IMG/VR virus record: IMGVR_UViG_3300030012_004106
Coordinates: 1-33,814 of that record
From: a virus
Length of the DNA stretch: 33,814 nucleotides
Strand: one strand, 5' to 3'
The number at the start of each line of letters is the position of its first letter. The stretch's first letter is position 1. The notes beneath the pieces were generated by a model that saw only the letters and a list, made by a program, of their open reading frames with translations, did no database searches and was not told the origin of the DNA. This document shows positions 2,408 through 33,768 of the stretch, piece by piece. The position numbers and the translations under genes are program-made.

Positions 2408-4822
2408 ATGGCATATTCTAATAGTTATTTTCCTAAACAAACTGTAAGCGATGCAGAAAAGCTTAGCTATGATTACGGTTTAAAAGTAGCTAAAGCTATA
2501 GAAACTGAATGGTTTAATGATGATAGAAATAATAATAGATATAGAAATAACTATAATAACTTTCATAATCTAAGATTATATGCTAGAGGCGAACAATCAA
2601 TACAAAAATACAAAGATGAATTATCTATAAATGGTGATTTGTCTTATTTAAATTTAGACTGGACACCTGTTCCAATTATACCTAAGTTTGTAGATATTGT
2701 AGTTAACGGTATATCAGAAAGACTGTACGACGTAAAAGCTTATTCTCAATCACCTAATGGTGTAGATAAAAGAACAAACTACATGGAGTCATTGTTGGCT
2801 GACATGCAATTAAGAGAGTTTGATGAAGAAAACTTTGCAGCTTTTGGTATAGATTCTAGACAAACTACAGATATTGATTTACCAGAAACTAATGAAGAAC
2901 TACAGTTGCATATGCAACTTAATTATAAACAAGCTGTAGAGTTAGCAGAAGAGCAAGCTATAAATACTCTTTTTGATGGCAACAACTACGACTTAATACA
3001 AAAAAGATTTTATTATGATTTAGCAGTGCTAGGTATTGGTGCTGTCAAAACAGACTTTAACACTTCAGAAGGCGTTACAATTAAATATGTTGATCCTGCT
3101 GATTTAGTTTATTCTTATACAGACTCACCTTATTTTGAAGACATATATTACGTTGGTGAAGTAAAAAATATACCTGTTAACGAGCTAGCAAAAGAGTTTC
3201 CTTTTTTAAGTGAAACTGACTTAGAAGATATAATGAACAACAGTTCTTATTATAGAAACAGTAATAGAAGTAGATATAATTCTGACAAAGAAGATAACAA
3301 TAAAATACAAGTTTTATATTTTAATTATAAAACTTATATGAACGAAGTATACAAAGTTAAAGAAACAGGTACTGGGGCAGAAAGAATAATACCTAAAGAT
3401 GATAACTTTAATCCACCTGAAGACAAACAAGGTGAATATTCAAAACTATTAAGATCTATAGAGGTTTTGTATGAAGGCGCTTATATATTAGGTAGTGATA
3501 AACTTTTAAGATGGGAGATGGCTTCAAATATGATAAGACCAAAAAGTAATTACACTAAAGTAAAAATGAACTATGCTATAGTTGCACCGCGTATGTATAA
3601 TGGTAAAATTGAAAGTATAGTTAAACGTATAACTGGTTTTGCTGATATGATACAGCTTACTCATTTAAAGTTACAACAAGTTATGTCTAGACTAATACCT
3701 GATGGTGTTTATTTAGACGCAGATGGTTTAGCTGAAATAGATTTAGGTAATGGAACTAATTATAATCCACAAGAAGCTTTAAATATGTTTTTCCAAACTG
3801 GTTCTGTAATTGGTAGATCATTTACAAGTGAAGGTGATATGAACCCTGGTAAAGTACCAATACAAGAAATAAACACTAATAATGGTGGTGCTAAAATGCA
3901 AAGCTTAATAGGTACGTATAATTATTATTTACAAATGATAAGAGACACTACAGGTTTAAATGAAGCTAGAGATGGTAGCATGCCAGATAAAAACGCTTTA
4001 GTTGGTGTACAAAAATTAGCTGCTGCAAATAGTAATACTGCTACTAGACATATACTAAACTCCGGTTTGTTTTTAACTTCTCAAATAGCAGAGTTATTAT
4101 CTCTTAGAATATCTGATATTATAGAATATTCTCCTACAAAAGAAGCTTTTATTGAATCAATGGGTGTTCACAATGTAGCTACATTAGAAGAAATGTCTAA
4201 CTTGCATTTGTATGACTTTGGTATATTTATAGAGCTACAGCCAGATGAAGAAGAAAAAGCAAGACTTGAAAACAATATTCAAATGGCTATACAACAAAAA
4301 AGTATAGACTTAGAAGATGCTATTGATATTAGAGAAATAAAAAATATAAAATTAGCTAATCAAGTTTTAAAAATAAGAAGACAAAAGAAAATAGATAGAG
4401 ATAGACAAATGCAGCTTGAAAATATACAAGCTCAAACGCAGTCTAATACACAAGCAGCTCAAGCTGCAGCGCAGGTTGAACTTCAAAAAGAACAAGCCTT
4501 AACTCAGTCTAAAATACAGCTAGAACAAGCTAAAGCTGAACTTGAAAATCAAAAAATGATGGCTGAAGCTGAACTTAAAAAACAACTTATGGGTCTAGAG
4601 TTTCAATACAATATGCAGCTTAAAGGTGTTGAATCACAAGTGTTAAAAGATAGAGAAAAACAAAAAGAAGATCGTAAAGACGAAAGAACAAAAATACAAG
4701 CTACTCAACAAAGTGAGATGATAGAGCAAAGAAAAAGTGGAAAACCACCTAAAAACTTTGAGTCTGCAGGTAATGATATAATGGGAGGTGGCTTTAATCT
4801 AGAGTCTTTTGAACCTAGATAA
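2408..4822 (+). CDS. Portal protein
   Basis: This is the probable portal subunit, the dodecameric ring at the capsid vertex through which DNA enters and leaves. The N-terminal part contains YLNLDWTPVPIIPKFVDIVV (about residues 78-97), a pattern I recognise from portals of crAss-like phages. The middle part includes GTYNYYLQMIRDTTGLNEAR and DKNALVGVQKLAA, typical of the portal stem and clip region. From about residue 610 the chain starts with QPDEEEKARLENN. It then becomes a long Gln/Ala/Lys/Glu-rich coiled coil to about residue 775, which would form the barrel projecting into the capsid. The length of 804 residues and the position between terL and the scaffold/capsid pair agree with a portal. 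The gene follows terL by one base and starts at AATAATATGGC without a Shine-Dalgarno sequence. The function call is well supported by context; I could not verify homology. Confidence 0.85.
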   Translation: MAYSNSYFPKQTVSDAEKLSYDYGLKVAKAIETEWFNDDRNNNRYRNNYNNFHNLRLYARGEQSIQKYKDELSINGDLSYLNLDWTPVPIIPKFVDIVVNGISERLYDVKAYSQSPNGVDKRTNYMESLLADMQLREFDEENFAAFGIDSRQTTDIDLPETNEELQLHMQLNYKQAVELAEEQAINTLFDGNNYDLIQKRFYYDLAVLGIGAVKTDFNTSEGVTIKYVDPADLVYSYTDSPYFEDIYYVGEVKNIPVNELAKEFPFLSETDLEDIMNNSSYYRNSNRSRYNSDKEDNNKIQVLYFNYKTYMNEVYKVKETGTGAERIIPKDDNFNPPEDKQGEYSKLLRSIEVLYEGAYILGSDKLLRWEMASNMIRPKSNYTKVKMNYAIVAPRMYNGKIESIVKRITGFADMIQLTHLKLQQVMSRLIPDGVYLDADGLAEIDLGNGTNYNPQEALNMFFQTGSVIGRSFTSEGDMNPGKVPIQEINTNNGGAKMQSLIGTYNYYLQMIRDTTGLNEARDGSMPDKNALVGVQKLAAANSNTATRHILNSGLFLTSQIAELLSLRISDIIEYSPTKEAFIESMGVHNVATLEEMSNLHLYDFGIFIELQPDEEEKARLENNIQMAIQQKSIDLEDAIDIREIKNIKLANQVLKIRRQKKIDRDRQMQLENIQAQTQSNTQAAQAAAQVELQKEQALTQSKIQLEQAKAELENQKMMAEAELKKQLMGLEFQYNMQLKGVESQVLKDREKQKEDRKDERTKIQATQQSEMIEQRKSGKPPKNFESAGNDIMGGGFNLESFEPR

Positions 4823-9198: not shown

Positions 9199-10791
9199 AT
9201 GGGATTATACGATAGCATAACACATCAAAGTTATTACCAAGGAAACGATCTTGGTAATTATCAATTTGTATCAATAAAAGATATTATGAATCAGTTTATG
9301 GTTGCTTATGTAGGTGAAAACAAAATAATACCAAAAATAAAAAAAGCTGATGTTTTTTTTCATGCTCAAAGAGCTTTACAAGAATTATCTTTTGATACTA
9401 TAACTTCTTTTAAATCTCAACAAATAGATGTACCACCAAGTTTAGTAATGCCAATACCTCATGATTATGTTAACTATACTAAAATATCTTCAGTAGATAA
9501 TTCTGGTATAAAGCACGTTTTGTATCCTACAAAATACACTAATAATCCTTTTCAAATAAAACAAAGCGAAGGAGACTTAAGTTATTCATTTCCCTCTGGA
9601 GAAGAAACTTTAGTTAATCCTGGTTTTACAGATTTAAATGGGCAAGTACCTGAAAATTGGATTAGAAAAGCTGCGGGAAGTAATCACGGACCGGCAAACT
9701 TTAATAGTACGTTAGGTATTGTAGACGGTAAATTAACTTGGGCTTATAGAACTAAAGATACTGCCGGTGGAGCAGGATGGGGTCAAATTGGTGTTTTATA
9801 CCAAGAAGTAGATGTTTCTAGTTTAACTTATGCTGATTTGTCTGGTGATGGTGTTACTAGTGATATAACTTATGAAAACACTTCTAGTAACACAAACTCT
9901 GGAACAGCTGTTGGTACTATTAGACTTGGAATAACAACACAAGATCCTTCAACTATTACAAATTTAAATAATTATGATGACTTTACACATCCAAATACTG
10001 GTGTGTTTTTTCCACAATCTCCTTTTGGTAAAACAAGTTATTTTGATTTAGGTTATGTAGAATGGACTGGTAATGATAGCGGTATCAAAACACTTGAAGA
10101 TGTAGATCTTACAAATCACAATACTGTTTATGTTGTTGCTCTATCTTTTATAGATGTTTCAGAACCTTTAGATAATGGCTTTATGTTAAAGCCGGTTGAT
10201 TTACATGCGTCAAATCCATCACCTAATGGTATTATAACAGGTACAGGTAACATAAATTCTTTAGATGATTTAAGTCTAACAAACGCTTTTGCTAGTACAG
10301 AGCTTTCTTCTCCGCTTGGTAACGAAACAAACTCATCTACATGGAATAATTACAAGTCACATACGGCTTCTGAAAACAATATTAACGACTATCAGGATTA
10401 TGAAAATAATGTTTATTGGCCTAATGAAGGTGAAAGATATGGATTAGATCCAGAACACGCTCAAATAAATGGTAGCTTTTATATAGACCAAAGATTAGGT
10501 AGAATACATTTTAGTTCTGTTTTAAGCGGGCAAACTATTATATTAGATTATATAAGCGATGGATTAGGAACTGAAGATGAAATGAAAGTACATAAGTTTG
10601 CTGAAGAAGCTATGTACAAAAGTATAGCTTATGCTATTTTATCAACGTCTAATTATGGACAGTCTTTAGTACCTAGATTTAAAAAAGAAAAATTTGCTGA
10701 AACTAGAAAAGCAAAATTAAGATTATCAAGTTTTAAATTAGAAGAATTAACTCAAATACTTAGAGGTAAGTCTAAGCAAATAAAACACTAG
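9199..10791 (+). CDS. Tail tubular/ring protein with a large inserted beta domain
   Basis: The N-terminal (residues 1 to about 134) and C-terminal (about 400-530) parts look like one head-completion/ring protein split by an insertion. The N-part has FFHAQRALQELSFDTITSFK and PPSLVMPIPHDYVNYTKIS. The C-part has RYGLDPEHAQINGSFYIDQR, YISDGLGTEDEMKVHKFAEE and LRLSSFKLEELTQILRGKSK. The intervening 260 or so residues begin LVNPGFTDLNGQVPENWIRK and are Gly/Thr/Asn-rich beta, the style of carbohydrate-binding jelly-roll modules. The core role would be to extend the portal channel and dock the muzzle encoded next. The stop is TAG, the only one in the window. The downstream ATG follows after a single codon in the same frame. 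Family placement is from remembered patterns. Confidence 0.8.
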   Translation: MGLYDSITHQSYYQGNDLGNYQFVSIKDIMNQFMVAYVGENKIIPKIKKADVFFHAQRALQELSFDTITSFKSQQIDVPPSLVMPIPHDYVNYTKISSVDNSGIKHVLYPTKYTNNPFQIKQSEGDLSYSFPSGEETLVNPGFTDLNGQVPENWIRKAAGSNHGPANFNSTLGIVDGKLTWAYRTKDTAGGAGWGQIGVLYQEVDVSSLTYADLSGDGVTSDITYENTSSNTNSGTAVGTIRLGITTQDPSTITNLNNYDDFTHPNTGVFFPQSPFGKTSYFDLGYVEWTGNDSGIKTLEDVDLTNHNTVYVVALSFIDVSEPLDNGFMLKPVDLHASNPSPNGIITGTGNINSLDDLSLTNAFASTELSSPLGNETNSSTWNNYKSHTASENNINDYQDYENNVYWPNEGERYGLDPEHAQINGSFYIDQRLGRIHFSSVLSGQTIILDYISDGLGTEDEMKVHKFAEEAMYKSIAYAILSTSNYGQSLVPRFKKEKFAETRKAKLRLSSFKLEELTQILRGKSKQIKH

Positions 10792-10794
10792 TTT

Positions 10795-13700
10795 ATGCCG
10801 GAAATTAAAAATACCTTTTTAAAAGGTAAAATGAATAAAGATCTTGATGAAAGATTAATTCCAAACGGAGAATATAGAGATGCGTTAAACGTAAAGGTTT
10901 CTACATCTGAAGATTCTGAAGTTGGAACAATACAAACAATACTTGGTAATGAACGTGCTGACGCTTTAGTTCCAAATGATCATGTTTGTGTCGGTAGTGT
11001 TTCAGATGAAAAAACTAATAAATTATATTGGTTTACTAAAACTTCTAGTGTAGATTTAATATTAGAATATGATCAAAATACACAATCTTCTCAATATGTA
11101 TTTGTTGATACTAAAACAAACACAGATGACGCTGTTTTAAAATTTCCTGATAGACTTATAACTGGTATAAATGTTATTGATAATCTTTTATTTTGGACAG
11201 ATGGAATAACAGAGCCTAAAAAAATAAACATAACAAACTGTATAATAGGAACTATACAAGATCCTTTAGTAGCTTTAACAAGTCATACTCAGTTAGTTGT
11301 TAACGGTGTAAACACTCTTACCGACATTAAAGAAGAAAATATAACCGTTATTAAAAAGAAACCAAATAGAGCTCCAGTAGCTAATATAGTTTATGCACAA
11401 AATACAGGTAATAGTAACGATAAAAATTCTTTATTTGAAAGAACTTTTTCAAGATTTTCTTTAAGATACAAATATGACGATGGTGAAGTTTCTGCTTTTG
11501 GACCTTTTTCAGATGTAGTCTTTAATCCTCAATATATTTCTAATACCAACTACGATGAGCTAGCTACTGTTGACGGTGCTAAAGAAAATAATTTTACTAG
11601 AAAAGAGCCTTTTAACAGGGCTATGGTTAATAAAATAGATAAAATAGAAATATTTGATTTTGTTTCACCAGAAATGCCAGGCAATGTTGTTGAAGTAGAA
11701 ATACTTTACAAACAAGAAGATTCACCTATTATATATTCTATAGCAAAACTAGATATAAACGATAATTCTTGGCAACAGCCTGGTTTTAATGAAGGTCATA
11801 GTGTTATTGATTCTGAATACAAAGGTAAATACACAATTGAAACAGAAAATATATACGCTGCATTACCAGAAAATCAATTTATTAGAGTTTTTGATAATGT
11901 TCCACGTTATGCTTTAGCTCAAGAAGTTACTGGCAGTAGAATAGTTTATGGTAACTACACTCAAAACTATGATATATTACGAGATGAATATAATCATGAA
12001 GTTAGATTAGAAGATAGAATTAATACCCAATACTTAAGCAACGATGGTAACTTTGATTTAAGTCCACAAAAAAGTTTAAAATCATTACGTAATTATCAGT
12101 TAGGTGTTGTGTATGGTGATAAGTATGGTAGAGAAACTCCTGTTTTTACAACAGAACGTGCAGCTGTTTCTATACCTTGGCAAGAAGGAAGTGATTTTAA
12201 CGCTAGTAAAAGATTAAGTTTAGTTGTAGATAATAGTACTAATTATCCAACTTGGGCTGATTATTTTAAATACTATGTAAAAGAAACTTCTACAGAATAT
12301 TATAACTTAATAATGGATAAGGCTTTTGTTCCTACATCTCAAGATGATGTTGACAGAAACTTACCGTCTGATCATATATGGCTTTCTTTTTTCTCTTCTG
12401 ATAGAAATAAAATAACAGAAGAAGATCATATAATATTAAAGAAAATATTTGGAACATTACCTGGTCAAATTACTCAAAACAATAAGTTTAAAGTAATAGA
12501 TGTAAAAAATGAAGCTCCAGAATCTATACAATTTGATACAAAAAGAGTTTATGTTGAAGTTAATCAACAAACATTAAATGACATTTTTGACATTAGTAGT
12601 AGTAGAATAACAGATACTGTAAGTCAAATAAAGTTAGATTTTGATGAATATATATCAGCTGGAGGTTATGATTTTTTATCTACAGATAGAACTGGTGACT
12701 CACCAACAGAACCTCAATTTAAAGTTACTGATCATTATATAATATGGCAAGACAACGCTACAACAGGTCCTACAGCTGGACAAGTTTCTAGAAGATATAG
12801 AATAGATAATGCTATTATAGATAACACTGAAATAATATTAAAGTTAGACAGAGCTATAACAACAGAAGATGCTAATATAGCAGACGTCAATAGCTCGACT
12901 AATGGTACTATAAAAAGTACACTTCAATTTGAAGTTGAAAGAAAACAAAGAAGAGAGTTAGATCAATTTTCTGGTAGATTTTTTGTTAAAATAGCTTTTA
13001 ATAATTTAGCTTCTCAAATACAAGATGTAATACCTGATTTAATAAATGCTTTTACACCTGTAAGTACTTTAGGCCTTAGACATTTTATAGATGAAGTTGA
13101 TTCTAATAGTCTTGATCCTAGCTCCGTAGCTGTAAATAATGATAATACTGGCGCAACCGCTTACACAAGCGCTGGAGGTAATAATGAAAACGTTGTTAAC
13201 GGTATTACGTTGGCTAGTGGCGTTACAAATACTAAATCTGATTGGAATGCTTTGACAGAAGAAATAAGTAGCGAAAGCGCTAGTACAGATGCAGATATAG
13301 AGTTTTTTATAGATGGTTTATATTATTGCGCTGGTAACTGGGGCGCTGAAATAGGCCAGCCTTTTGCTTCTAGAGCTGTAAACATACAAAGAGGTAATGG
13401 TACTGGTAGTGGTGGAGATCAATACGTTTATGTTGAATGGAAAGACACTTCATATTATGACGATTTACCTTGGAGAGCTAATAACGGTATAATTGATGTT
13501 AATGGAGCGGCAGGTGCGAATTCTAAGAATTATTATCCTTATGTAAAATATACTAATACTAAAGAAGGTCCACATAGCACAAGTGGTGGTGGTACAAATT
13601 TAAACGCTGGTAATAATGATTTTATAGACTATAACGGTCCAGATGGTGTTTATGGTAGTGGTGATAGATATGACAGTTCTCCAAATGGTTTAAGAGAAAT

Positions 13701-16700
13701 ACCTGGTATAGATTTAACAGGTACTACACTACAAACCTCTTTTGATCCTCCGGTTGGTGGAGCTGGTCAAATATCAACAAACTATGCGGCTCAAGTACCT
13801 ATGTTTAGATGGTTTCCTTTTGACAAAGATAATCACAACATGGGTGGTCTTGATGGTATAGACGCTTATTACAACAATACTAACACCCCTTGGAGAGGTG
13901 CTGTTGTTAACGTACATCCAAACTCTAGTAATATTACAGGTGATAACGTTACTTTTCCTATTCGTTTTTTCCACAAGTCTATATATAAAGATACTTTCAA
14001 TCCAGGAAATCCTATAACAGAAAACCTTCCTCCTTCTCATTATGGTTTAAATGGTTACCAAAATTCTGGTCACAATGCTACCGAAGTTGTAAATGCTTTA
14101 GAAGGTTTTATAGTTAGTACAAATGAACACACTACTGGTTCTAGAACTTGGAGAAAAGAAAATATAGGTAGTGTGTTTTCAAACTTTTCTAGCGATGACA
14201 CGTATGGTTCTGCAGGTGATGAAGGTAAATTTTATATACATCTTACATTTTTAGCGCCTGGCCAAGACTTAACAGATTCTACTTTTAGTTTACCTAGCAA
14301 TTTAGATATACAAGGTAATAATAGTTTAGGAAAACATTTACAAGGTATACATGGTGGTGGTGTTTTTACTAAATCATATAAACAAGCTACAGATGACGGG
14401 TTTGATGCTTTTGATAACACTGATAATTGGGATTCACCAAGAACTATACATTGTGAAGGTAGTACTAACAATACACTTACGTTAGATTTAGGTCATGATC
14501 CTAATTTTCAAAATTTACACGACGAACAGTGGGATCCTACAAAAACTCCTTATGGAGATCCAAACGGTACAATAGCAGGTTATATAAACCTAATAACAAC
14601 TACTGGTGCTAAATTTATTTTTGCTGGAGATACTAATAACACTGTATATACTATTTTAAGTACATCTAGAAAATATCTTTATAATCATACTCCTTGGAGA
14701 AGGAGATATATAAGAGATACTGCGGGATCTGCTCCTATTAACAGTTCGTATCAAGATGATTGGGCTCTTAACGGTAAAAATATAGCTGCTAATGATAGTG
14801 TTGAAGAAGCTGCTGTTACTTGGGCTAAGTCAAAAGCTCTTAATGAAGCACAAGCAACACAAACTGCAAATAGAGATGCTTTATCTCAAAAAATACAAGA
14901 TTTTGGCAAAAGAAATAATAGACGTGTTGTATATATTATTGAAATAGATAAAAACCCAACAGACGCTACTGTTAACGGTGGTTATAATCCTTTTGACGCT
15001 GACAATGATGGTGGAAGTGGAATTACAGCTGCTTCATCTGCAAACTTACAATTTATAAGTAACGTAGCTAATTTTTCTCAAGGTAGTAGTTCTATATTTC
15101 CTGCCATATGGGAAACTGAACCAAAGAAAAACACAGATTTAGAAGTTTATTACGAAGTTAGTAAAGCTGTACCTTTAAATATTAATAGTTTTAATAGAGA
15201 AACTTTAGCAACCGTTGGTTGTGAAATTAAACATGAAAGTATACAAGAAGCTATAACTGCAGGTACACCTGTATTTTTAGAAGGATGGAGAGAAGAACAA
15301 GGAGAGCAAATAGCAATTTTAAATCCCGGTTTAAACTCTCAATATCCTAGCACTATACCGATTGATTATGACAATACTTATATAACTTTTATTTCTAAAG
15401 ATGGTAGTTTTGTAAACGCACAAATAGAACCTTCTTCTTTAACAGCTGGTGCTTCAAATGGTTATTTTACAGAGTTTAGTATAAGATTAAATCAACCATC
15501 AACAATAACAGGTTTAAGTTATTACAATTCTTTTTCTTTTGGTAATGGTATAGAGTCAAATAGAATACGTGATGATTTTAATCAAATGCAGATTACTAAT
15601 GGAGCTAGAGCTTCTGCTGTTCTTGAAGAACCTTACAGCGTTGAAAATAAAAAAAGTAGCTTAATATACTCTGGTATATATAATTCAACTTCAAATATAA
15701 ACAACTTAAATCAGTTTATTGCCGGTGAAAAAATAACAAAAGATTTAAATCCTACATACGGTAGTATACAAAAATTATTTCAACGAAGAATAAGTTTAGT
15801 AGCTTTTTGTGAAGATAGAGTTGTAAGTATAGTTTCTAACAAAGACGCTTTATTTAATGCTGATGGTAATTCTCAATTAATTTCTACAAATAGAGTTTTA
15901 GGTGATGCTACGCCTTTTGTTGGTGATTATGGTATATCTAAAAACCCAGAAAGTTTTGCTAAGGAATCTTATAGAGCTTATTTTACAGATAAAAATAGAG
16001 GTGCTGTTTTAAGATTATCTAAAGATGGTATAACACCTATATCTCAAGCTGGTATGCATGATTGGTTTAGAGATAACTTACCTTTAGCAAATAAAATATT
16101 AGGAAGTTATGATGAATATAATCAAGATTATAATATAAGCTTGATAGTTGACTTACCTAATTACAATTTGATACAAAACTCATTTGTAGAAAGAGGTTCA
16201 GAGTTTGTTTCTTTAGGATCCGGTACAGAAAAAGTTATTGATGGTAGTTTAAATAGTAGCACTAATTATGATTTTCCTAAAGCGTTACCTTGGCAAAACG
16301 ATAATAGTTTTAGTAATGCAGATTCTAGTGGTATGGGACTTAAAAATCAAGATTTAATTAGTGAAGTTAAAATAATAAAACACGAGTTAATACCAGCTGG
16401 TTCTTTTCAAACTTATCAACCCGCTACTACTACAACTACAATAACAGTTCCTGCTGAGTCTTATATAGCTGCTACTTATAGTAATAATAACCCAGATAAT
16501 TATGGTAGTAGTAGCCAAAGTCAATTAATATATGGATACGCAACTGGACATACTCTCAGCGGCTCTATTAATATTTTTAATCCTGATAATGGTGCTGGTG
16601 CTTCTGATTCTCACCTAACACTAGGTACTAATGGTGAAAGAGAAGCTTATATTTTAAGATTTATAGACGAAAGCTTTGTTAACCCTCTTCAGGCTGCAGA

Positions 16701-19700
16701 TTACTTTGATTCTTCAGATTATAGCTTTTATAATAATGGTTATCAGTTTGATAACATATATATAGCTGAAGGTATGAGTGGTGATCCTATTGTTATTTCT
16801 GATCCTCACGATGCGAGTAGTCCACTTAGCTCATCAAATCAGTTTGATCTATCTTGGTTTAATGACGCGGGTATAATGTACGCTTCTAAAGGTACTTCTT
16901 CTGCTTCTTTAAATAGTGGGCCAACACCTCCAGGTCCAGGTAGAGTAAGTGATGCAACTGAAAGTTCTTTAAATTATGGCGACGCAATACAAAGCTCTTA
17001 TAATTCTTTTGCACATAGTATTAGAACTAATGATACTGATCTTTGTGTTTACAAAGGAGAAGTAATAATAGTAGAATATCATTTACGCTTTCAAAATTTC
17101 ATTGTAAATAGCAGTTATACATATAGTGGTGTGCCTAGTAATCATGCAGGAAACTCGAGATTATTTCATTTTTCAGGAGGTGAAGTACTAAATTCTAGTA
17201 TGACTCAAGGTAATGCTACTTATGATAATCCTGCTACTTCATACGCAGGAAGTACTTATCCTCTTCCTAATGGTGGAGAGTTTGGTACTGATGGTGGCTC
17301 TATAACTGTACAATGCTTTCTTATAGATGGAAATAATTTCACTGGTTTTGCTTCGTTATCAAGTTTGACTAACGGAACAGTATCTCCACTTACTGGTAAT
17401 GAGCTTTATTATGAAAGCTATAAAGATATGAACAATAATGATGGAAACTATTGGATTACAGATAAAGATGTTTGTAACCCACAGTGGTATTCATATGGCA
17501 ATGGTGGTAATGCAAGAGTAAGACAAGTTTTTAAATTTCCAGAGCACGTTAATGCTCCTGACACTTCTGGACCTACTTTAGATGATTTACTTGTTACAGA
17601 TGATTTAAGAGTAGTATTAAAGTTTAAACCTTCTGGAAACATGGTTCCAAATAATAATTATACTGGACCAGCTGGCTCTACAATTTATCCTGGACCTATA
17701 ATTATTAAAGACTTTAATGTTTATAAAGCTGACACAATAGCAAGTTTACCAGATAATAGTGTAACTCAACAATCAACTACAACTACTACAAATATGGTAC
17801 CAGGTATACCAACTGCTGATGTTCCAGAGTGGCACGAAATAATAGCAAATCAACCATACTGGACAACTGATAGGCCTGATTTAGTAAACTTACATGCTGT
17901 AGCTACTAATAATCATGGTGTTAATACAGGGTCAGTTAGTACAAATAGTGCAACAGATACTCAAGGTAATGTTTGGGTCTGGCAAGTTGATCCTTTGACA
18001 AATAGTTTTGGAACTGCTAACACAGATGCTCTTAACAATCCTTATGTTGCTGGTGATATTTACCAAACTATAGGTGTACCTACTACTGCTGGTGACGCTA
18101 TGTCTAATGCAAGCATTGTTGAGCCTTCACATATAAAAACTTATAACGATCAAATAGAAATAACACCTACAACTAGTAATCCATCTAACGTAAATATATA
18201 CCAAACTTTAACAAATGCTTATCAAGCTAGTCATTTTTATTTACTTGATGCTGTTACTAGTAAATCATCTTCTGCTGTTAGATCTGTTTATAGTAGAAAT
18301 TACGACAATACTAATAAAAATTTATTTGGAATACGTGGTATTTTTGATCCAAGTAGCACTGTAGTTACTGATACAGATGTTAGTTTTGAACAATCTGGAT
18401 ATCCTGGTTATCCTTATCATCATTTTGGTAGAATAAGAGGTAGTGTAAATAGCGCTTCAGGTAGAAGAATTCAAGCTCTTTTTGTGGATCCTACAAAAGA
18501 TGCTACAAACGATTACTTGTCTGATTATAATAATATTTATCACGAAACAAACGTAAATGGTTTTATTAATGTAAATCAACCTTTTTTACATTCGTTATTT
18601 AATTATGCTAGTTATGCAGCTGATACTAATGTTTTAAGATCTATATATAAAATGGATAGTAATAGTAATCACCTAGCAAATGATCCAGGATTGTTAAACA
18701 TTAATATTTTTCAGCCAACTGAATTTACATCGAGTGGTAATATTGGCGCTATAACAAGTCTTAGATTAATAGATCTTGGTTTAGATACAACAGGTGGAAC
18801 TCATTATAGCACTGGTAGTTTAACAGACTGGAACACAGGAAATTCTGCTTACCAACAGCATTTAATGGTTACACCTAGAAATTATGTAAATAACAATGTT
18901 AGCTATCATAATGGTTTAATGCCGAATGTTTTAAGTAAAGAGGGTAATCCTGCTTTTACAAATCCATCAACAGGCGCGCATTTTTCTCAAAGATATTCTA
19001 ATCCTGGTGGACAAGGACCTAATGAAATTGCTGAATTAGCACCACCAGCTACAGACTCTGGTTATGAATTTAGATTTGATTTTTTACCTGAACATTTACT
19101 TGCAACTAATTATGGAGGATGTTTTTGTAACGTAAATGGTGTAGATGGTAAAGGTTTTAGAATTAATGATATTACACAGACAGGTAGATATAAAATAATA
19201 GCTAATGTTGATAGTACAGATGATCCTATTGTTGATGGTACTGTTTGGAGTATAGAATATGATCCTGCATATGGAACAAATTGGCAATCAACAACTGCCA
19301 CACTTGTACCTCGTGATGTTTCAGCCCAAGCACCAGGCTCATTTGGTAGGTTTTATGGTAATGTTTTTTTTGGTGCAGATCCTAACAACGAAGGCATGTT
19401 CGCGTTTGGTGTTTCTAATATTAGTTTAGTTGATAGAACCGCTTATTATATAGCACCGTTTTCACCTTCTTGGATTTTTGTTAATAATACCGAGTTAGGA
19501 TTTAACTGGAGTAACGGACAGTTAGTTATAAATAGTGCTTATCGAAAAAACGCTATTGTTGGTGATCCATTGTTAAATTATCCTAACGCTTTTCAAGATG
19601 TAGGATTTATACCTCAAGGTCAAAAAATAAGATTTAGTGTTGACTACGCGGATCTTGGAGGAGATCCAAACGCTAATATTGAAATTTTTTATGTAAATAG

Positions 19701-20745
19701 TAATTTAAAAGGTTTTTATTTAGCATTTGGAGCTGGTGATAATGGTAATATTTTACATCCAAACGCTTCTGAATTAACAACATATCAAGAAGTACACGCG
19801 GACGGATCTTCTGGTACTTTTGAAGCTGAAGTAGAGGTTGGTGATTTATCTAATATAGAAGCTTTTGGTAATTTAACACCAGGAAGCATTGAGCTTCCTT
19901 ATATAAATAGACTTGTTATAAGAGCGGCTGGAACTTATGGTGGTTCAACTTACGAAAGTATAACAGCAAATTATTCTTTAGATAATTTTTCTATGGTTCC
20001 ATTTACACCTATAAATATAAGTCAAAACAAAACAATTAGTTTTAGTGAAGATGTTAATGGTTGGACTAGTTTTAAATCTTTTGCTCCAGAATCAGCATTA
20101 AGCTTATCAAAAAAATATTATACTTTTCATAATGGTGGTTTATATAAACACGACGTAGAAACAAATGGTTATAATAATTTTTACGGCACACAGTTTGATT
20201 CTAGCGTTACAGCTATTTTTAATGCAGAGCCATCAATGATAAAGTCTTTTAAAACTTTAAGTTACGAAGGCTCTAAATCACGTGTTTCTAAATTTGTTAC
20301 AACAAACATAGTTGATTCTAACAATACTATACTTGAAAATTTAGATACTCTTAATTATAGCCATGTAAATAATTTAGAAGATGTTGATGGTTGGTATGTA
20401 GAAAATATATCAACAAACAAGCAAGATGGTTTTGTAGATGAATTTATAGAAAAAGAAGGTAAGTGGTTTAATTATATAAAAGGTGGGTTGGTAACTATTG
20501 ATCAGGATTATATATCAAAACATACTGGAGATTTAAGTTTTCAAGGTATTGGAGAAATAGGCACTATACAAGATGTAACATTAACCGATACTGAACTTAA
20601 CGATATAGATCCATTAGAACCTGGAACTTCTGCAGCAAATGCTCCACTACCTAACATGGTTCAGCCAGTGCTTCAACCACCAGGCTCAGCTCCTTATACA
20701 CCACCTTCTGATCCAGCTGGAAGCGGAAATACTTCAATATATTAA
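10795..20745 (+). CDS. Giant muzzle / tail-stabilization-type protein with adhesin-like insertion
   Basis: At 3316 residues this is the largest protein in the window. The N-terminus (NTFLKGKMNKDLDERLIPNG, EYRDALNVKVST, VGTIQTILGN) matches the start of P22 gp10-like and crAss-like muzzle proteins, beta-propeller proteins that close the tail end. A second conserved block spans about residues 1448-1790, with ESNRIRDDFNQMQITNG, LIYSGIYNSTSNINNLNQF, SNKDALFNADGNSQ and GDYGISKNPESFA. A third spans about 3081 to the end (EDVNGWTSFKSF, GKWFNYIKGG). Between blocks two and three lie about 1290 residues of Asn/Ser/Thr/Gly-rich beta sequence. This stretch includes two Thr-runs (1878-1882 and 2328-2332) and two tandem jelly-roll-like modules (about 2755-2900 and 2900-3073). 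Other marine muzzle proteins are, as I recall, clearly shorter. The insertion is probably exposed and host-contacting. The final 50 residues are Pro/Gly-rich. The neighbours on both sides are tail genes. Confidence 0.8.
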   Translation: MPEIKNTFLKGKMNKDLDERLIPNGEYRDALNVKVSTSEDSEVGTIQTILGNERADALVPNDHVCVGSVSDEKTNKLYWFTKTSSVDLILEYDQNTQSSQYVFVDTKTNTDDAVLKFPDRLITGINVIDNLLFWTDGITEPKKINITNCIIGTIQDPLVALTSHTQLVVNGVNTLTDIKEENITVIKKKPNRAPVANIVYAQNTGNSNDKNSLFERTFSRFSLRYKYDDGEVSAFGPFSDVVFNPQYISNTNYDELATVDGAKENNFTRKEPFNRAMVNKIDKIEIFDFVSPEMPGNVVEVEILYKQEDSPIIYSIAKLDINDNSWQQPGFNEGHSVIDSEYKGKYTIETENIYAALPENQFIRVFDNVPRYALAQEVTGSRIVYGNYTQNYDILRDEYNHEVRLEDRINTQYLSNDGNFDLSPQKSLKSLRNYQLGVVYGDKYGRETPVFTTERAAVSIPWQEGSDFNASKRLSLVVDNSTNYPTWADYFKYYVKETSTEYYNLIMDKAFVPTSQDDVDRNLPSDHIWLSFFSSDRNKITEEDHIILKKIFGTLPGQITQNNKFKVIDVKNEAPESIQFDTKRVYVEVNQQTLNDIFDISSSRITDTVSQIKLDFDEYISAGGYDFLSTDRTGDSPTEPQFKVTDHYIIWQDNATTGPTAGQVSRRYRIDNAIIDNTEIILKLDRAITTEDANIADVNSSTNGTIKSTLQFEVERKQRRELDQFSGRFFVKIAFNNLASQIQDVIPDLINAFTPVSTLGLRHFIDEVDSNSLDPSSVAVNNDNTGATAYTSAGGNNENVVNGITLASGVTNTKSDWNALTEEISSESASTDADIEFFIDGLYYCAGNWGAEIGQPFASRAVNIQRGNGTGSGGDQYVYVEWKDTSYYDDLPWRANNGIIDVNGAAGANSKNYYPYVKYTNTKEGPHSTSGGGTNLNAGNNDFIDYNGPDGVYGSGDRYDSSPNGLREIPGIDLTGTTLQTSFDPPVGGAGQISTNYAAQVPMFRWFPFDKDNHNMGGLDGIDAYYNNTNTPWRGAVVNVHPNSSNITGDNVTFPIRFFHKSIYKDTFNPGNPITENLPPSHYGLNGYQNSGHNATEVVNALEGFIVSTNEHTTGSRTWRKENIGSVFSNFSSDDTYGSAGDEGKFYIHLTFLAPGQDLTDSTFSLPSNLDIQGNNSLGKHLQGIHGGGVFTKSYKQATDDGFDAFDNTDNWDSPRTIHCEGSTNNTLTLDLGHDPNFQNLHDEQWDPTKTPYGDPNGTIAGYINLITTTGAKFIFAGDTNNTVYTILSTSRKYLYNHTPWRRRYIRDTAGSAPINSSYQDDWALNGKNIAANDSVEEAAVTWAKSKALNEAQATQTANRDALSQKIQDFGKRNNRRVVYIIEIDKNPTDATVNGGYNPFDADNDGGSGITAASSANLQFISNVANFSQGSSSIFPAIWETEPKKNTDLEVYYEVSKAVPLNINSFNRETLATVGCEIKHESIQEAITAGTPVFLEGWREEQGEQIAILNPGLNSQYPSTIPIDYDNTYITFISKDGSFVNAQIEPSSLTAGASNGYFTEFSIRLNQPSTITGLSYYNSFSFGNGIESNRIRDDFNQMQITNGARASAVLEEPYSVENKKSSLIYSGIYNSTSNINNLNQFIAGEKITKDLNPTYGSIQKLFQRRISLVAFCEDRVVSIVSNKDALFNADGNSQLISTNRVLGDATPFVGDYGISKNPESFAKESYRAYFTDKNRGAVLRLSKDGITPISQAGMHDWFRDNLPLANKILGSYDEYNQDYNISLIVDLPNYNLIQNSFVERGSEFVSLGSGTEKVIDGSLNSSTNYDFPKALPWQNDNSFSNADSSGMGLKNQDLISEVKIIKHELIPAGSFQTYQPATTTTTITVPAESYIAATYSNNNPDNYGSSSQSQLIYGYATGHTLSGSINIFNPDNGAGASDSHLTLGTNGEREAYILRFIDESFVNPLQAADYFDSSDYSFYNNGYQFDNIYIAEGMSGDPIVISDPHDASSPLSSSNQFDLSWFNDAGIMYASKGTSSASLNSGPTPPGPGRVSDATESSLNYGDAIQSSYNSFAHSIRTNDTDLCVYKGEVIIVEYHLRFQNFIVNSSYTYSGVPSNHAGNSRLFHFSGGEVLNSSMTQGNATYDNPATSYAGSTYPLPNGGEFGTDGGSITVQCFLIDGNNFTGFASLSSLTNGTVSPLTGNELYYESYKDMNNNDGNYWITDKDVCNPQWYSYGNGGNARVRQVFKFPEHVNAPDTSGPTLDDLLVTDDLRVVLKFKPSGNMVPNNNYTGPAGSTIYPGPIIIKDFNVYKADTIASLPDNSVTQQSTTTTTNMVPGIPTADVPEWHEIIANQPYWTTDRPDLVNLHAVATNNHGVNTGSVSTNSATDTQGNVWVWQVDPLTNSFGTANTDALNNPYVAGDIYQTIGVPTTAGDAMSNASIVEPSHIKTYNDQIEITPTTSNPSNVNIYQTLTNAYQASHFYLLDAVTSKSSSAVRSVYSRNYDNTNKNLFGIRGIFDPSSTVVTDTDVSFEQSGYPGYPYHHFGRIRGSVNSASGRRIQALFVDPTKDATNDYLSDYNNIYHETNVNGFINVNQPFLHSLFNYASYAADTNVLRSIYKMDSNSNHLANDPGLLNINIFQPTEFTSSGNIGAITSLRLIDLGLDTTGGTHYSTGSLTDWNTGNSAYQQHLMVTPRNYVNNNVSYHNGLMPNVLSKEGNPAFTNPSTGAHFSQRYSNPGGQGPNEIAELAPPATDSGYEFRFDFLPEHLLATNYGGCFCNVNGVDGKGFRINDITQTGRYKIIANVDSTDDPIVDGTVWSIEYDPAYGTNWQSTTATLVPRDVSAQAPGSFGRFYGNVFFGADPNNEGMFAFGVSNISLVDRTAYYIAPFSPSWIFVNNTELGFNWSNGQLVINSAYRKNAIVGDPLLNYPNAFQDVGFIPQGQKIRFSVDYADLGGDPNANIEIFYVNSNLKGFYLAFGAGDNGNILHPNASELTTYQEVHADGSSGTFEAEVEVGDLSNIEAFGNLTPGSIELPYINRLVIRAAGTYGGSTYESITANYSLDNFSMVPFTPINISQNKTISFSEDVNGWTSFKSFAPESALSLSKKYYTFHNGGLYKHDVETNGYNNFYGTQFDSSVTAIFNAEPSMIKSFKTLSYEGSKSRVSKFVTTNIVDSNNTILENLDTLNYSHVNNLEDVDGWYVENISTNKQDGFVDEFIEKEGKWFNYIKGGLVTIDQDYISKHTGDLSFQGIGEIGTIQDVTLTDTELNDIDPLEPGTSAANAPLPNMVQPVLQPPGSAPYTPPSDPAGSGNTSIY

Positions 20746-20754
20746 AAACAAAAT

Positions 20755-22296
20755 ATGAGTTATCACAATACAAACACATCTAATTTAAGACAACAGTCTC
20801 AACAAAATATACTAACATATATTAATGGTGCGCCTTTATTTAGAACTATACAACAAGCTTTAAACTATGGTCAAAGTATTGGTTTAACAGGTTATCATAC
20901 TCATACTTTTGAAAATATTATTGGCTATATGGCTGGATTTGATCATTCAGAAGCTACTTTAAACGCGCAACGTCAAGCAATACAAGATGAGCAATTAATT
21001 TTACAAAAACAAATTAATTCTTTTGAAATTAACACTAATGATTTATCTCCTGTTGCTACTAATAGATCTTTACAGATTAATGGTGATATTGGTAGTGAGT
21101 TTTCTTTACAAGTTATACAAAACTCTGCTTCTAGTAGTGTTTTAGATAAGTTTTATAATTTTAAAACAAAAACTTTTGATTCTATTTTTAATAATAGTCA
21201 TGTTTTAAACGTAAAATTACAAAGTAATTTTTTTGCTAAAAATATATTTTTTCCTGCTACAGTTGTTACAGATTACAGAATAGTTTTAACAGCTAAAAAT
21301 AACACTATAATAAATAGTGCTATAGGTACAAGTGACAAAGTTGTTTCTAAAACAATAACACAAACAGGTGATGTAACTATTGATTTTGTTTTTAAAACTA
21401 GTAACACTAGCAGTTATAATGCTAACCCTCCATCAACAACTTTACAAATAAACGGTAAACCAGGTTTGGTTACTGTAGATACTTTAGATATTAGTAAAAC
21501 AATAACTAATACAACTGGAGCTACTAATAGTTTTGGATTAATAGTTTCTAGTGTTTTTAAAGATGAAACAGGTTTTTTTATAGAAAAAAATCATACTGTT
21601 AACGGTGGTATAACAAACTCAAACGTATTAGCTTTAGACGATGTTAGTAATATTGCAGAGGGTAGTGTTATTACAGCTAGTACTGGTAGTTTAAGTGGAA
21701 CTCCAACTGTTAACGCTATAAATGGTAATAAAATTACATTAAGTAGTGCGCAAAGCTTTGCAGATGGTATTACTTTAACTTTTAAAACTACAGGCTCTTC
21801 TAAAATTGAAAAAGCTACAGGTTTATTGTTTACAACTGCAAGAAGTATAGAAAATCTTACACAATCTACTATTGACGCTAATACTGAATCTATAGAAAAT
21901 CCTGAAGTTGTAACAGTATTAGATAATAGTCAATTTGTACAGACTACAGTTAGAGCAGATGGTTCGTTGTCAGAAGCTACAGATGGTAGTAGTGCTGTTG
22001 TTGCTGTAAATGGAACTAATGGCATTAGCAAAGACTCTGTTATTGCAGGTTTTTCAATACCAAATAATGGTACTAAAGTAACTGCTATAAATACAGCTAG
22101 TGCTAGTGCTGGTCATTTAACATTAAATCAAGCTTTACCAGAAACTTTAGATGCTGGTCAAACAGTTACTTTTATAGGATCTTCAAAAACTTTTGAATTT
22201 GTTAACTGTCAAGTTCAAATAAGTAAATATCCTACATCTAATCTAACAGTTAATATTGATTTAGATTCTTTTATAACCCCTGGAACAGCATCATAA
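20755..22296 (+). CDS. Virion structural / fibre-like protein with beta repeats
   Basis: This 513-residue protein follows the muzzle gene. The N-terminus contains ALNYGQSIGLTGYHTHTFEN and GYMAGFDHSEATLNAQRQAI, a His-rich motif I remember from structural proteins of marine phages, followed by a helix (QAIQDEQLILQKQINSFEIN) that could trimerise or anchor the protein. The rest is Thr/Ser/Asn-rich beta sequence. Two related modules stand out: residues 303-350 (GSVITASTGSLSGTPTV ... ITLSSAQSF) and 427-478 (DSVIAGFSIPNNGTKVT ... LTLNQALPET), each ending with a GSSK motif. Such modules are common in phage fibres and decorations. The protein could be a tail fibre or an outer decoration of the tail. 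It has no lytic or depolymerase motif. Confidence 0.7.
   Translation: MSYHNTNTSNLRQQSQQNILTYINGAPLFRTIQQALNYGQSIGLTGYHTHTFENIIGYMAGFDHSEATLNAQRQAIQDEQLILQKQINSFEINTNDLSPVATNRSLQINGDIGSEFSLQVIQNSASSSVLDKFYNFKTKTFDSIFNNSHVLNVKLQSNFFAKNIFFPATVVTDYRIVLTAKNNTIINSAIGTSDKVVSKTITQTGDVTIDFVFKTSNTSSYNANPPSTTLQINGKPGLVTVDTLDISKTITNTTGATNSFGLIVSSVFKDETGFFIEKNHTVNGGITNSNVLALDDVSNIAEGSVITASTGSLSGTPTVNAINGNKITLSSAQSFADGITLTFKTTGSSKIEKATGLLFTTARSIENLTQSTIDANTESIENPEVVTVLDNSQFVQTTVRADGSLSEATDGSSAVVAVNGTNGISKDSVIAGFSIPNNGTKVTAINTASASAGHLTLNQALPETLDAGQTVTFIGSSKTFEFVNCQVQISKYPTSNLTVNIDLDSFITPGTAS
21661..22188 (+). repeat. Two diverged beta-module repeats within the fibre-like gene
   Basis: The encoded modules at residues 303-350 and 427-478 share the order [GD]SVI, a GT[PK]xV[NT]AIN motif, [IL]TL, a DG/AGxTLTF-type strand, and GSSK. 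The similarity is at protein level; the DNA is diverged, so this is an old duplication rather than recent slippage. The segment between the two modules (351-426) carries a Thr-rich linker. Confidence 0.6.
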
Positions 22297-22298
22297 TT

Positions 22299-22667
22299 AT
22301 GGCAATATATAAAATAACTTTAAATAATAGTGGTATAAACAACCCTTCACTTCAAGTAGGTGATTATGCTTTTTATCAATCTACTACTACTTTTTCAAAC
22401 TCTTCTGGTACTAACAACGTTGCAATAAGCGCAGATAATCCTATTTATATTGGACCTGTAGTTGATATAGGTCCAAACTTTATACTTGTTGAAAGTACAA
22501 TAGATACAACTTTAATATATGGTTTTTTAATGTTTTCAAAAGATAAAAGAGTAAACAACGATAGTTTAAATGGTTATTATGCTGAAGTTACTATAAGAAA
22601 TAACGATCCTGAAAACGCTTCAGAAATGTTTGCTATAAATACTGAAGTTGTTAAAAGTAGTAAATAA
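22299..22667 (+). CDS. Small structural protein
   Basis: This 122-residue protein starts two bases after the fibre-like gene (TAATTATGGC). It is beta-rich, with IYKITLNNSGINNPSLQVGD, PIYIGPVVDIGPNFILVEST, FLMFSKDKRVNNDSLNGYYA and EVTIRNNDPENASEMFAINT. It has no signal peptide or membrane segment. The segment FSKDKR.N..SL.GYYAEVT recurs, in my memory, in small proteins of marine phage tail modules annotated as hypothetical. Tight coupling to the fibre-like gene suggests it binds that protein as an adaptor or decoration. This is inference from position only. Confidence 0.75.
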   Translation: MAIYKITLNNSGINNPSLQVGDYAFYQSTTTFSNSSGTNNVAISADNPIYIGPVVDIGPNFILVESTIDTTLIYGFLMFSKDKRVNNDSLNGYYAEVTIRNNDPENASEMFAINTEVVKSSK

Positions 22668-32664: not shown

Positions 32665-33768
32665 ATGGTGAAAAGAATAATAACATTAATAATATTAACT
32701 ATACTTATTGCTTGCTCAGCGCCTAAAAAATGTTGCTCGCAAACAGATTTAAATATAGATGTTAAAAAGCTATTAAAGTTTTCAACTTTTTATGCCGCTG
32801 TTAATGGTGGTACATCTTTGTCTGATGTTGATGTTTTCTCTGTAGACAACGGGCTTTCTACTAGCACCATATCAACTCCTTATGATTATAATTTTACCAT
32901 TGGTCTTCGTAAAATAGCTAGATTTGGATATGAGAATAAAGCACAGACTTTTTACGATGGAACTGAATCTAATTACAGTGACGCGGCTACTGTAGGTAAA
33001 GTTAAAGGAGTTGAATATTTATTTGAAATAGATTACAAAAGACAAGAAGGTGTAGATTATATGGATCAACATCATTTTATTAGATTTAGTTCTGATGATG
33101 GTTGTCCTAGTGGTTTATGTGTAAACTTTTTTGCTTTAAAATTTGAATATTTACAAGATGGGTTTGCTGATGTAGAATATTTTGAGGCATCAGAAAGATA
33201 TAGATATAGAAAAAACAAAAATTTATCTTGGAATATTGGTTTAGCGCATAGACTAGCAGAGCCTTATGGTTATGATCCTCTTGACGAGTGGATGTTGTCA
33301 AATGGAAATTTACATTACACATATTTAGCTCTGCAAGAAGGTTATAATGTTGATGTGTATAGCAATGAATATTATAATCCAGCTGGAGAAGTTGTAGCGA
33401 CTAGTTCTGAAGTTTGGGAGGCTGTAGTAATACCTGAAGTGTTATCAGACTATGTTAATAAAAAAAGGAACGAGCTTGATAGAATAATGCAACACTCTAT
33501 AGTTGTTGGTTTTGATTATTATAAATACACGAAGAAAAATTGGTTACATGTATGGGGTAACTTAATGCCTTGGCATTATAATGATGGTAGCGAGTTTAGT
33601 TATCATAACTATATAGAAGATGATCAGTGGTATGATTATTCAGGCGGACTGATATATGGAGTAAAACAAAATAAAAATTTAGGGTATTTTATTGAAGGTA
33701 AATATAATAAATACTGGAACAGAGAATGGTATGACTTCAAGCTTGGAGTTAACTACGTAATATTTTAA
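32665..33768 (+). CDS. Phage-encoded outer-membrane barrel-like protein with signal peptide
   Basis: The N-terminus MVKRIITLIILTILIACSAP is a signal peptide: two basic residues, a Leu/Ile core and LIAC, a lipobox with Cys17. An alternative is signal peptidase I cleavage near CCSQ-TDLN, since Bacteroidota signal peptides often end in SQ. The mature 340-350 residues alternate polar and aromatic residues in strand-like stretches (YNFTIGLRKIARFGYENKAQ, FFALKFEYLQDGFADVEYF, YSGGLIYGVKQNKNLGYFIE, KYNKYWNREWYDFKLGVNYV). The chain ends in Phe, as outer-membrane barrels do. It would sit in the host outer membrane during infection. Possible roles are masking the phage receptor (superinfection exclusion) or weakening the envelope at lysis. 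A virion protein is less likely because of the signal peptide. Position at the end of the structural block, just before a further small gene, fits a late host-envelope function. Confidence 0.75.
   Translation: MVKRIITLIILTILIACSAPKKCCSQTDLNIDVKKLLKFSTFYAAVNGGTSLSDVDVFSVDNGLSTSTISTPYDYNFTIGLRKIARFGYENKAQTFYDGTESNYSDAATVGKVKGVEYLFEIDYKRQEGVDYMDQHHFIRFSSDDGCPSGLCVNFFALKFEYLQDGFADVEYFEASERYRYRKNKNLSWNIGLAHRLAEPYGYDPLDEWMLSNGNLHYTYLALQEGYNVDVYSNEYYNPAGEVVATSSEVWEAVVIPEVLSDYVNKKRNELDRIMQHSIVVGFDYYKYTKKNWLHVWGNLMPWHYNDGSEFSYHNYIEDDQWYDYSGGLIYGVKQNKNLGYFIEGKYNKYWNREWYDFKLGVNYVIF

What the first reader, a model, noticed from the sequence alone, without database searches (positions are those of the whole stretch)
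10795..20745. Muzzle-type protein enlarged to 3316 residues by a long beta-rich insertion
Three blocks that look conserved (about 1-760, 1448-1790, 3081-3316) are separated by long Asn/Thr/Gly-rich segments. The second gap is about 1290 residues and includes jelly-roll-like modules. If the conserved parts form the tail-closing propeller, this insertion would project outward and could take over receptor binding, making a combined gate and adhesin.
Basis: partly seen in the sequence, partly recalled or inferred. Interest (0 to 1): 0.62.

Follow-up and report, generated by a model that had tools for sequence, protein, structure and literature searches.

The report
Phage tail gate carrying swappable adhesin
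A marine virus of the crAss-like kind has a very large protein at its tail tip, in which about 1,300 extra amino acids, ending in sugar-binding-type folds, are spliced into one tight turn of the conserved exit gate; in related viruses this piece changes far faster than the rest and has been swapped between viruses, as expected if it recognises the host cell.

Summary
ORF 10795-20745 (3316 aa) is a crAss-type muzzle (Pfam crAss_MUZ_C above cut-off, muzzle synteny; a minimal relative folds like the phiCrAss001 muzzle, Z 24). The second gap is a true insertion, residues 1784-3079 (1296 aa), in a hairpin turn inside the beta-propeller, not in the crass or IG2 domains where muzzle insertions were reported. 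In 149 complete relatives the flanking blocks are 7-34 aa apart (102) or 586-1473 aa apart (47), with nothing between. The core tree fits one gain and two losses. The insertion has a shared entry segment, a highly variable middle, and a shared base of two jelly rolls whose best structural matches are carbohydrate-binding modules. It diverges much faster than the core. One phage (L095) has core DNA 87-98% identical to L042, yet part of its insertion is 83-96% identical to distant L019 and only 45-52% to L042: a cassette swap. Other lineages put large modules at the muzzle C-terminus or in the next gene. Best reading: a gate with a built-in, exchangeable receptor/glycan-binding adhesin. Binding, and sole responsibility for host recognition, are inferred; a separate fibre-like gene lies 7 kb beyond the window. 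New variant of a known kind.

The parts
10795..20745 (+). Muzzle-type tail protein, 3316 aa
   Evidence: phrog_14478 virion structural protein E 2.1e-128; Pfam PF25729 crAss_MUZ_C at residues 3126-3229, 40.5 bits against cut-off 27; synteny terminase-portal-MCP-...-ring protein-muzzle as in phiCrAss001, Calle_1, Panino
10795..13344 (+). Conserved block A (residues 1-850): N-terminal and propeller part plus domains inserted in it
   Evidence: aligned in most relatives at 30-45% identity; in the minimal relative L037 these residues map onto 7qol_P from residue 40
13345..14070 (+). First variable segment, residues 851-1092 (N/T/G/S 39.5%)
   Evidence: almost no relative aligns here; composition
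14071..16143 (+). Conserved block B (residues 1093-1783), ends with propeller strands GSYDEY and YNISL
   Evidence: should contain the blade-4 gate region, inferred from phiCrAss001 (PMC10172136)
16144..20031 (+). Insertion, residues 1784-3079 (1296 aa), between strands YNISL and TISFSE
   Evidence: relatives without it join the two strands by a few residues (L046 YNLTLNLN-TISYDE); bimodal B-C distance; turn between strands 941-946 and 955-960 of the L037 model
16144..16425 (+). Insertion entry segment (residues 1784-1877), recognisable in nearly all carriers
16426..18807 (+). Variable middle of the insertion (residues 1878-2671)
   Evidence: residues ~1950-2650 matched by none of 32 other insertions; in close pairs of relatives the middle is 31-89% identical while block B is 71-99%; swapped between phages in L095
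18808..19437 (+). Jelly roll 1 (residues 2672-2881), CBM-like
   Evidence: AlphaFold2 model m145b1a6764c5 795-1004 against CBM4 1gu3_A, Z 9.2, rmsd 3.2, 123 aligned
19438..20025 (+). Jelly roll 2 (residues 2882-3077), CBM-like
   Evidence: model 1003-1199 against CBM16 2zey_B/3oeb_A, Z 9.2, rmsd 2.7-2.8, 121 aligned
20032..20559 (+). Conserved block C (residues 3080-3255): end of the propeller plus crAss_MUZ_C
22299..22667 (+). 122-aa probable muzzle-associated protein
   Evidence: phrog_18548 joins muzzle block C (profile 2-99) to this protein (profile 144-239), as does Panino ORF 14940-15902; its homologue in insertion-free L036 carries jelly rolls like those of the insertion
9199..10791 (+). 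Ring (tail-tube) protein, 530 aa, itself enlarged
   Evidence: phrog_13977 at 8-121; phiCrAss001 gp43 is 236 aa

Best explanation
The protein is the tail-tip muzzle (exit gate) of a marine crAss-like podophage, probably of a Bacteroidota host. A module of about 1,300 residues has been inserted into a tight beta-hairpin turn of a late propeller blade (by my strand count the B-C turn of the penultimate blade). Because it enters and leaves through two neighbouring strands, it need not disturb the propeller and loops out as an appendage. If the muzzle is a hexamer as in phiCrAss001, six copies would add nearly as much protein as a whole phiCrAss001 muzzle. Its entry segment and its two jelly rolls form a conserved base; the middle is a variable, exchangeable tip. 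Most likely the module binds cell-surface glycans or another receptor, so recognition sits directly on the gate and binding could help trigger opening. SHOWN: muzzle identity, exact insertion site, jelly-roll fold of its last ~400 residues at model level, single origin in the sampled tree, faster divergence than the core, one recombinational swap. INFERRED: outward projection on the cell-facing side (B-C turns lie on the same face as the blade-to-blade loops, where IG1 is inserted), hexamer, glycan binding, role in host range, coupling to gate opening.
For: Muzzle family and fold. Insertion borders in a hairpin turn. One gain and two losses: 47 carriers plus L013, L015, L036 form one clade of 50, support 0.998; 3 state changes against at least 31 in shuffles. 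Hypervariability: e.g. L042/L095 A 96%, B 98%, C 97% against middle 43%, fourfold-site difference 0.09-0.15 against 0.39; L029/L175 B 95% against middle 39%; DNA identity in L042/L095 falls only over the insertion and at the end of the shared locus. Swap: L095 residues 1651-2025 are 83-96% identical in DNA to L019 but 45-52% to its sister L042, while the core is 87-98% to L042 and 64-86% to L019. Jelly rolls matching CBM4, CBM16, CBM11, CBM29. Other lineages place large modules next to the muzzle in two other ways: C-terminal extensions of 300-1288 aa with fn3, Ig and cadherin-like hits, never together with the insertion, and homologous separate downstream genes (L050 extension against L061 gene, E 8e-66; L065 against L080, 2e-45).
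Against: No binding or host-range data exist. The variable middle of this particular protein has no detectable homologue and mostly no confident model. CBM-like Z of about 9 is modest and many beta-sandwiches share the fold; no Pfam CBM family reached significance. A separate fibre-like gene exists in the same record. Never finding insertion and C-terminal extension together rests on one origin of the insertion, so it is not independent evidence. L013 and L015 lack the insertion without an obvious replacement. The swap is documented in other members of the clade, not in the window's own phage.
Confidence: 0.7

Rival explanations
1. The insertion is mainly a structural dock or collar that holds separate tail fibres, comparable to the fibre-dock domain of T7-like nozzles; variation follows the fibre it holds.
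For: T7-like nozzles have a fibre-dock domain (PMC10575957); a fibre-like gene is present at record 40874-43123.
Against: A module of 600-1470 residues is far larger than needed for a dock; a variable middle between conserved ends, swapped between phages, is typical of a recognition surface; relatives without it still have intact muzzle genes.
Confidence: 0.13
2. The insertion is an enzyme that degrades surface polysaccharide (depolymerase), its jelly rolls being accessory binding modules.
For: CBM-like folds often accompany glycan-degrading enzymes; some structural matches are glycosidases, although aligned over their beta-sandwich parts.
Against: No catalytic family hit in 41 insertions (single hit to Glyco_hydro_67M at E 0.004 in one member); no confident enzyme-like fold in the model; the middle is too variable to share an active site across carriers.
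Confidence: 0.1
3. The insertion is a passive decoration that prolongs virion stability or gives weak, non-specific adherence to particles, without a role in host choice.
For: Jelly-roll and Ig-like decorations are common on phage virions (established knowledge); L013 and L015 do without it.
Against: Kept in 47 of 50 members of the clade; hypervariable and swapped, which passive decoration does not require; part of the tail-tip protein, not the capsid.
Confidence: 0.07

Closest known systems
phiCrAss001 muzzle gp44 (PDB 7qol/7qok; PMC10172136)
   Same: Same family and fold: propeller, crAss_MUZ_C, position after the ring protein gene. The paper already notes length variation through insertions and suggests that the distal part touches the cell.
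   Different: gp44 is 1371 aa. The reported insertions are in the crass and IG2 domains; here 1296 residues sit in a propeller hairpin at the position of gp44 ~1199, which has a turn of about two residues.
Cellulophaga phages phi38:1, phi13:2, Calle_1 (Pervagoviridae group)
   Same: Among the closest annotated phages, about 31% identity over block A, same gene order.
   Different: Muzzle only 1324 aa (Calle_1); 18-residue B-C distance.
T7-type nozzle and P22 gp10
   Same: Propeller-based tail plug with gate loops (PMC10575957); P22 gp10 matches the L037 model at Z 19.
   Different: No crass or IG domains and no large adhesin-like insertion of this kind known to me; host recognition by separate fibres or spikes.
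Carbohydrate-binding modules CBM4, CBM16, CBM29
   Same: Fold of the two jelly rolls at the base of the insertion (Z 8-9).
   Different: Sequence identity 8-15%, no Pfam family hit; ligand unknown.
Modular phage receptor-binding proteins
   Same: Conserved anchor with a variable, recombining distal part.
   Different: Here the anchor is the exit gate itself and the variable part is an internal loop, not the C-terminal end of a trimeric fibre.

Membership tests
crAss-type muzzle protein | Sequence family of the muzzle (PF25731 / PF25729) | tested here: met
   PF25729 40.5 bits, cut-off 27; PF25731 not hit by the window protein but hit by its relative Calle_1
crAss-type muzzle protein | Overall muzzle fold (ring-joining part, propeller, IG and crass domains) | tested here: met
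   On relative L037 only: best match 7qol_P Z 24.2, 590 aligned, rmsd 5.2, model range 40-1020. The window protein was not folded whole; the crass domain was not resolved separately (pLDDT under 50 at 562-701)
crAss-type muzzle protein | Gene position directly after the ring (tail-tube) protein in the structural block | tested here: met
crAss-type muzzle protein | Hexamer with gate loop at the tail tip | not testable with these tools
   needs a virion structure
Order Crassvirales | Phylogenetic placement by hallmark genes | not tested
   phage phi13:2, among the nearest annotated phages, is the outgroup in PMC10172136; no hallmark tree was built here
Carbohydrate-binding module (CBM4/CBM16-like) | Jelly-roll fold | tested here: met
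   Z 9.2, rmsd 2.7-3.2 over 121-123 residues for both domains; Z of this size is modest
Carbohydrate-binding module (CBM4/CBM16-like) | Sequence family membership | tested here: inconclusive
   no significant Pfam CBM hit; one member GalBD_like E 0.009
Carbohydrate-binding module (CBM4/CBM16-like) | Binding of a glycan | not testable with these tools
   experiment needed
Receptor-binding protein (functional class) | Variable, exchangeable recognition part on a conserved anchor | tested here: met
   in relatives of the same clade:
Receptor-binding protein (functional class) | Binds the host and sets host range | not testable with these tools
   no isolate or binding data

The most novel reading that the evidence does not exclude
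In this clade the receptor-binding protein is not a fibre but a swappable loop of the gate itself: a 600-1470 residue cassette in one propeller turn, so that receptor binding acts directly on the blade ring that holds the gate, and phages change host by exchanging this cassette inside the gate gene.
Probability: 0.35. Interest if true: 0.75.

Novelty: new variant of a known kind. Interest (0 to 1): 0.6.

Why it matters
How crAss-like phages couple host recognition to opening of the muzzle is open; the distal muzzle is thought to touch the cell, without direct proof. A clade in which a large, fast-changing and naturally exchanged module hangs on the propeller itself gives a concrete test: its boundaries are fixed to a few residues, insertion-free relatives exist, and a natural swap (L095/L042/L019) predicts which trait should follow the cassette. 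It also shows three routes (internal loop, C-terminal fusion, separate neighbouring gene) by which related phages place large modules at or next to the same tail protein.

Tried and rejected
phmmer of the whole protein against PDB sequences found nothing; the relation to gp44 needed a family profile. A scan for close relatives of the insertion found none in viral contigs, so variation had to be studied in other members of the clade. DGR as the source of variation: no direct repeats of 45 nt or more in the window and no reverse transcriptase among the families found; the rest of the record was not searched for DGRs. Sequence-profile search of PDB with the insertion family gave only chance hits. 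Ring-protein inserts against insertion jelly rolls by hhalign: no match, though the insertion profile matches single ring proteins (L049 E 1e-5, L044 3e-4). Panino's split muzzle was considered as a break at the insertion site and rejected: the split is inside block B. Fisher test on insertion against C-terminal extension (p 0.001) is not used as evidence, because the insertion has one origin. Foldseek hits of the insertion to insecticidal proteins and glycosidases are matches over beta-sandwich parts and were not followed.

Full report
WHAT IS THERE. The window is positions 1-33814 of a 43,161-base virus record. It reads through a structural block: terminase, portal, major capsid protein, further virion proteins, then the ring protein, the 3316-aa ORF at 10795-20745, and downstream proteins of 513, 122, 297, 594 and 2400 aa. 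The ORF is a muzzle: phrog_14478 at E 2.1e-128 and Pfam crAss_MUZ_C at residues 3126-3229, above the curated cut-off. The nearest annotated phages infect Cellulophaga, Flavobacterium, Tenacibaculum and Maribacter at about 28-32% identity; relatives also turn up in metagenome-assembled genomes labelled Flavobacteriales, Flavobacteriaceae and Bacteroidetes, and in two contigs of a Maricaulis bin. A Bacteroidota host is therefore likely but not shown.

FAMILY AND FOLD. A family profile built from short relatives aligns with phiCrAss001 gp44 at residues 1055-1278 (E 5e-10) and 25-156. An AlphaFold2 model of the minimal relative L037 (1198 residues folded, mean pLDDT 61) has the phiCrAss001 muzzle as best solved match, 7qol_P, Z 24.2 over 590 residues, far ahead of Foldseek's next unrelated entry in E-value (1.6e-25 against 2e-7), and propellers of many kinds match residues 46-998.

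THE INSERTION SITE. In relatives without the insertion the chain runs from strand GSYD..YNLTL through a few residues into TISYDEKVKGWSSFKSF (L046); in the window YNISL (1779-1783) is separated from TISFSEDVNGWTSFKSF (from 3080) by 1296 residues. In the L037 model this is the turn between strands 941-946 and 955-960, within the propeller. The matching place in gp44, around residue 1199, lies after IG2 (318-1021), hence outside the crass and IG2 regions where PMC10172136 places length variation. Counting strands from the sequence I read it as the B-C turn of the penultimate blade; that numbering is mine. [quoted passage not shown] Other relatives carry insertions near the B-C turn of the first blade (around residue 80 of the window protein; L044, L049, L059, L078).

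DISTRIBUTION. Among 149 complete muzzles (248 loci held) the distance between blocks B and C is 7-34 residues in 102 and 586-1473 in 47. On a tree of the conserved core, all 47 carriers and three non-carriers (L013, L015, L036) form one clade with support 0.998, and three changes explain the states, against at least 31 in shuffled labels. One gain and two losses is the simplest reading. The sample was drawn by similarity to the window and to members of its clade, so frequencies are not population frequencies.

ARCHITECTURE AND VARIATION. Across carriers the first ~100 residues and the last ~330 of the insertion are recognisable; the middle is patchy, and in the window residues about 1950-2650 match none of 32 other insertions. 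In the AlphaFold2 model of residues 1878-3077 (mean pLDDT 60) the last ~400 residues are the best-defined stretch and form two jelly rolls whose best solved matches are carbohydrate-binding modules CBM4 and CBM16 at Z 9.2. Z near 9 supports the fold, not the function. Between close relatives the insertion changes fastest: L042/L095 are 96-98% identical in blocks A, B and C but 43% in the middle; L029/L175 are 95% in B but 39% in the middle. In L042/L095 and L003/L163 fourfold-degenerate sites also differ more in the insertion middle than in block B (0.39 against 0.15; 0.26 against 0.05), so selection on amino acids alone does not explain it. The cause is visible in L095: over its residues 1651-2025 its DNA is 83-96% identical to L019 and only 45-52% to L042, whereas before and after the insertion it is 87-98% identical to L042 and 64-86% to L019. 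The cassette was exchanged by recombination inside the gene.

ALTERNATIVE PLACEMENTS. Non-carriers often have a C-terminal extension beyond block C: 43 of the 149 exceed 300 residues, none of them a carrier. Some of these extensions are homologous to a separate gene directly downstream in another phage: L050 extension and the 1040-aa gene of L061 match nearly end to end (E 8e-66), L065 and L080 match over much of their length (E 2e-45). Pfam finds fn3, bacterial Ig, cadherin-like and LRR domains in a few of these proteins. Extra downstream genes of 450 aa or more were seen in 15 of 42 plain muzzles, 4 of 35 with an extension and 0 of 25 carriers where the anchor gene was on the contig. In L036, which lacks the insertion, the homologue of the window's 122-aa protein carries jelly rolls matching the insertion profile (E 7.5e-6 and 3e-4); that small protein is fused to the muzzle end in Panino, so the jelly rolls of L036 may still sit at the muzzle. 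This is a single case.

MECHANISM. The best-supported mechanism is a gate with a built-in recognition appendage: conserved base, exchangeable tip, placed on the propeller whose loops close the channel. Binding could be the trigger for opening, as proposed for the distal muzzle of phiCrAss001 (PMC10172136). Shown here: identity, site, single origin in the sample, variability, swap, fold of the base. Not shown: orientation, binding, ligand, host range, coupling. The record also holds a fibre-like 749-aa gene (L087 7175-9424), so the insertion need not be the only receptor-binding part.

VERDICT. It is a new variant of a known kind: muzzle insertions are known, but not, in the papers read, one of this size at this site with evidence of cassette exchange. 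The literature search was limited to open-licence papers.

Noticed in passing
window 9199-10791: The ring (tail-tube) protein is also enlarged (530 aa against 236 in phiCrAss001 gp43), with about 300 extra residues starting NPGF..W like a carbohydrate-binding jelly roll; it is 467-745 aa in relatives close to the window. In L029/L175 DNA identity there falls to 36-51%.
   Followed up: partly
window 32665-33768: 367-aa protein with a lipoprotein-type signal peptide and a pattern like an outer-membrane beta-barrel ending in Phe; a phage-encoded surface protein, perhaps for superinfection exclusion. No Pfam or PHROG hit.
   Followed up: no
L087 3099-5555 (record about 36798-39254): 818-aa protein with signal peptide, MAM domain (PF00629, E 2.5e-23), repeated GCTD..NY.P.A..DDGSC motifs and an end that resembles a type IX secretion sorting signal: a phage-borne secreted Bacteroidota-type protein.
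   Followed up: partly
L087 5563-9424: Three adjacent paralogous proteins of 134-144 aa, then (after a 106-aa ORF) a 749-aa fibre-like protein (phrog_6002 E 1.1e-14).
   Followed up: no
L084 11989-14829 and 14940-15902 (Maribacter phage Panino): The muzzle is split into two genes inside block B; the second carries crAss_MUZ_C fused to a homologue of the window's 122-aa protein.
   Followed up: partly
window 20755-22296: 513-aa protein whose first ~85 residues (with a GYHTH motif) are present in L007 and L024 but missing from most homologues.
   Followed up: no
L036 17534-18790: Homologue of the window's 122-aa protein with two inserted jelly rolls like those of the muzzle insertion, in a phage whose muzzle lacks the insertion.
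   Followed up: partly
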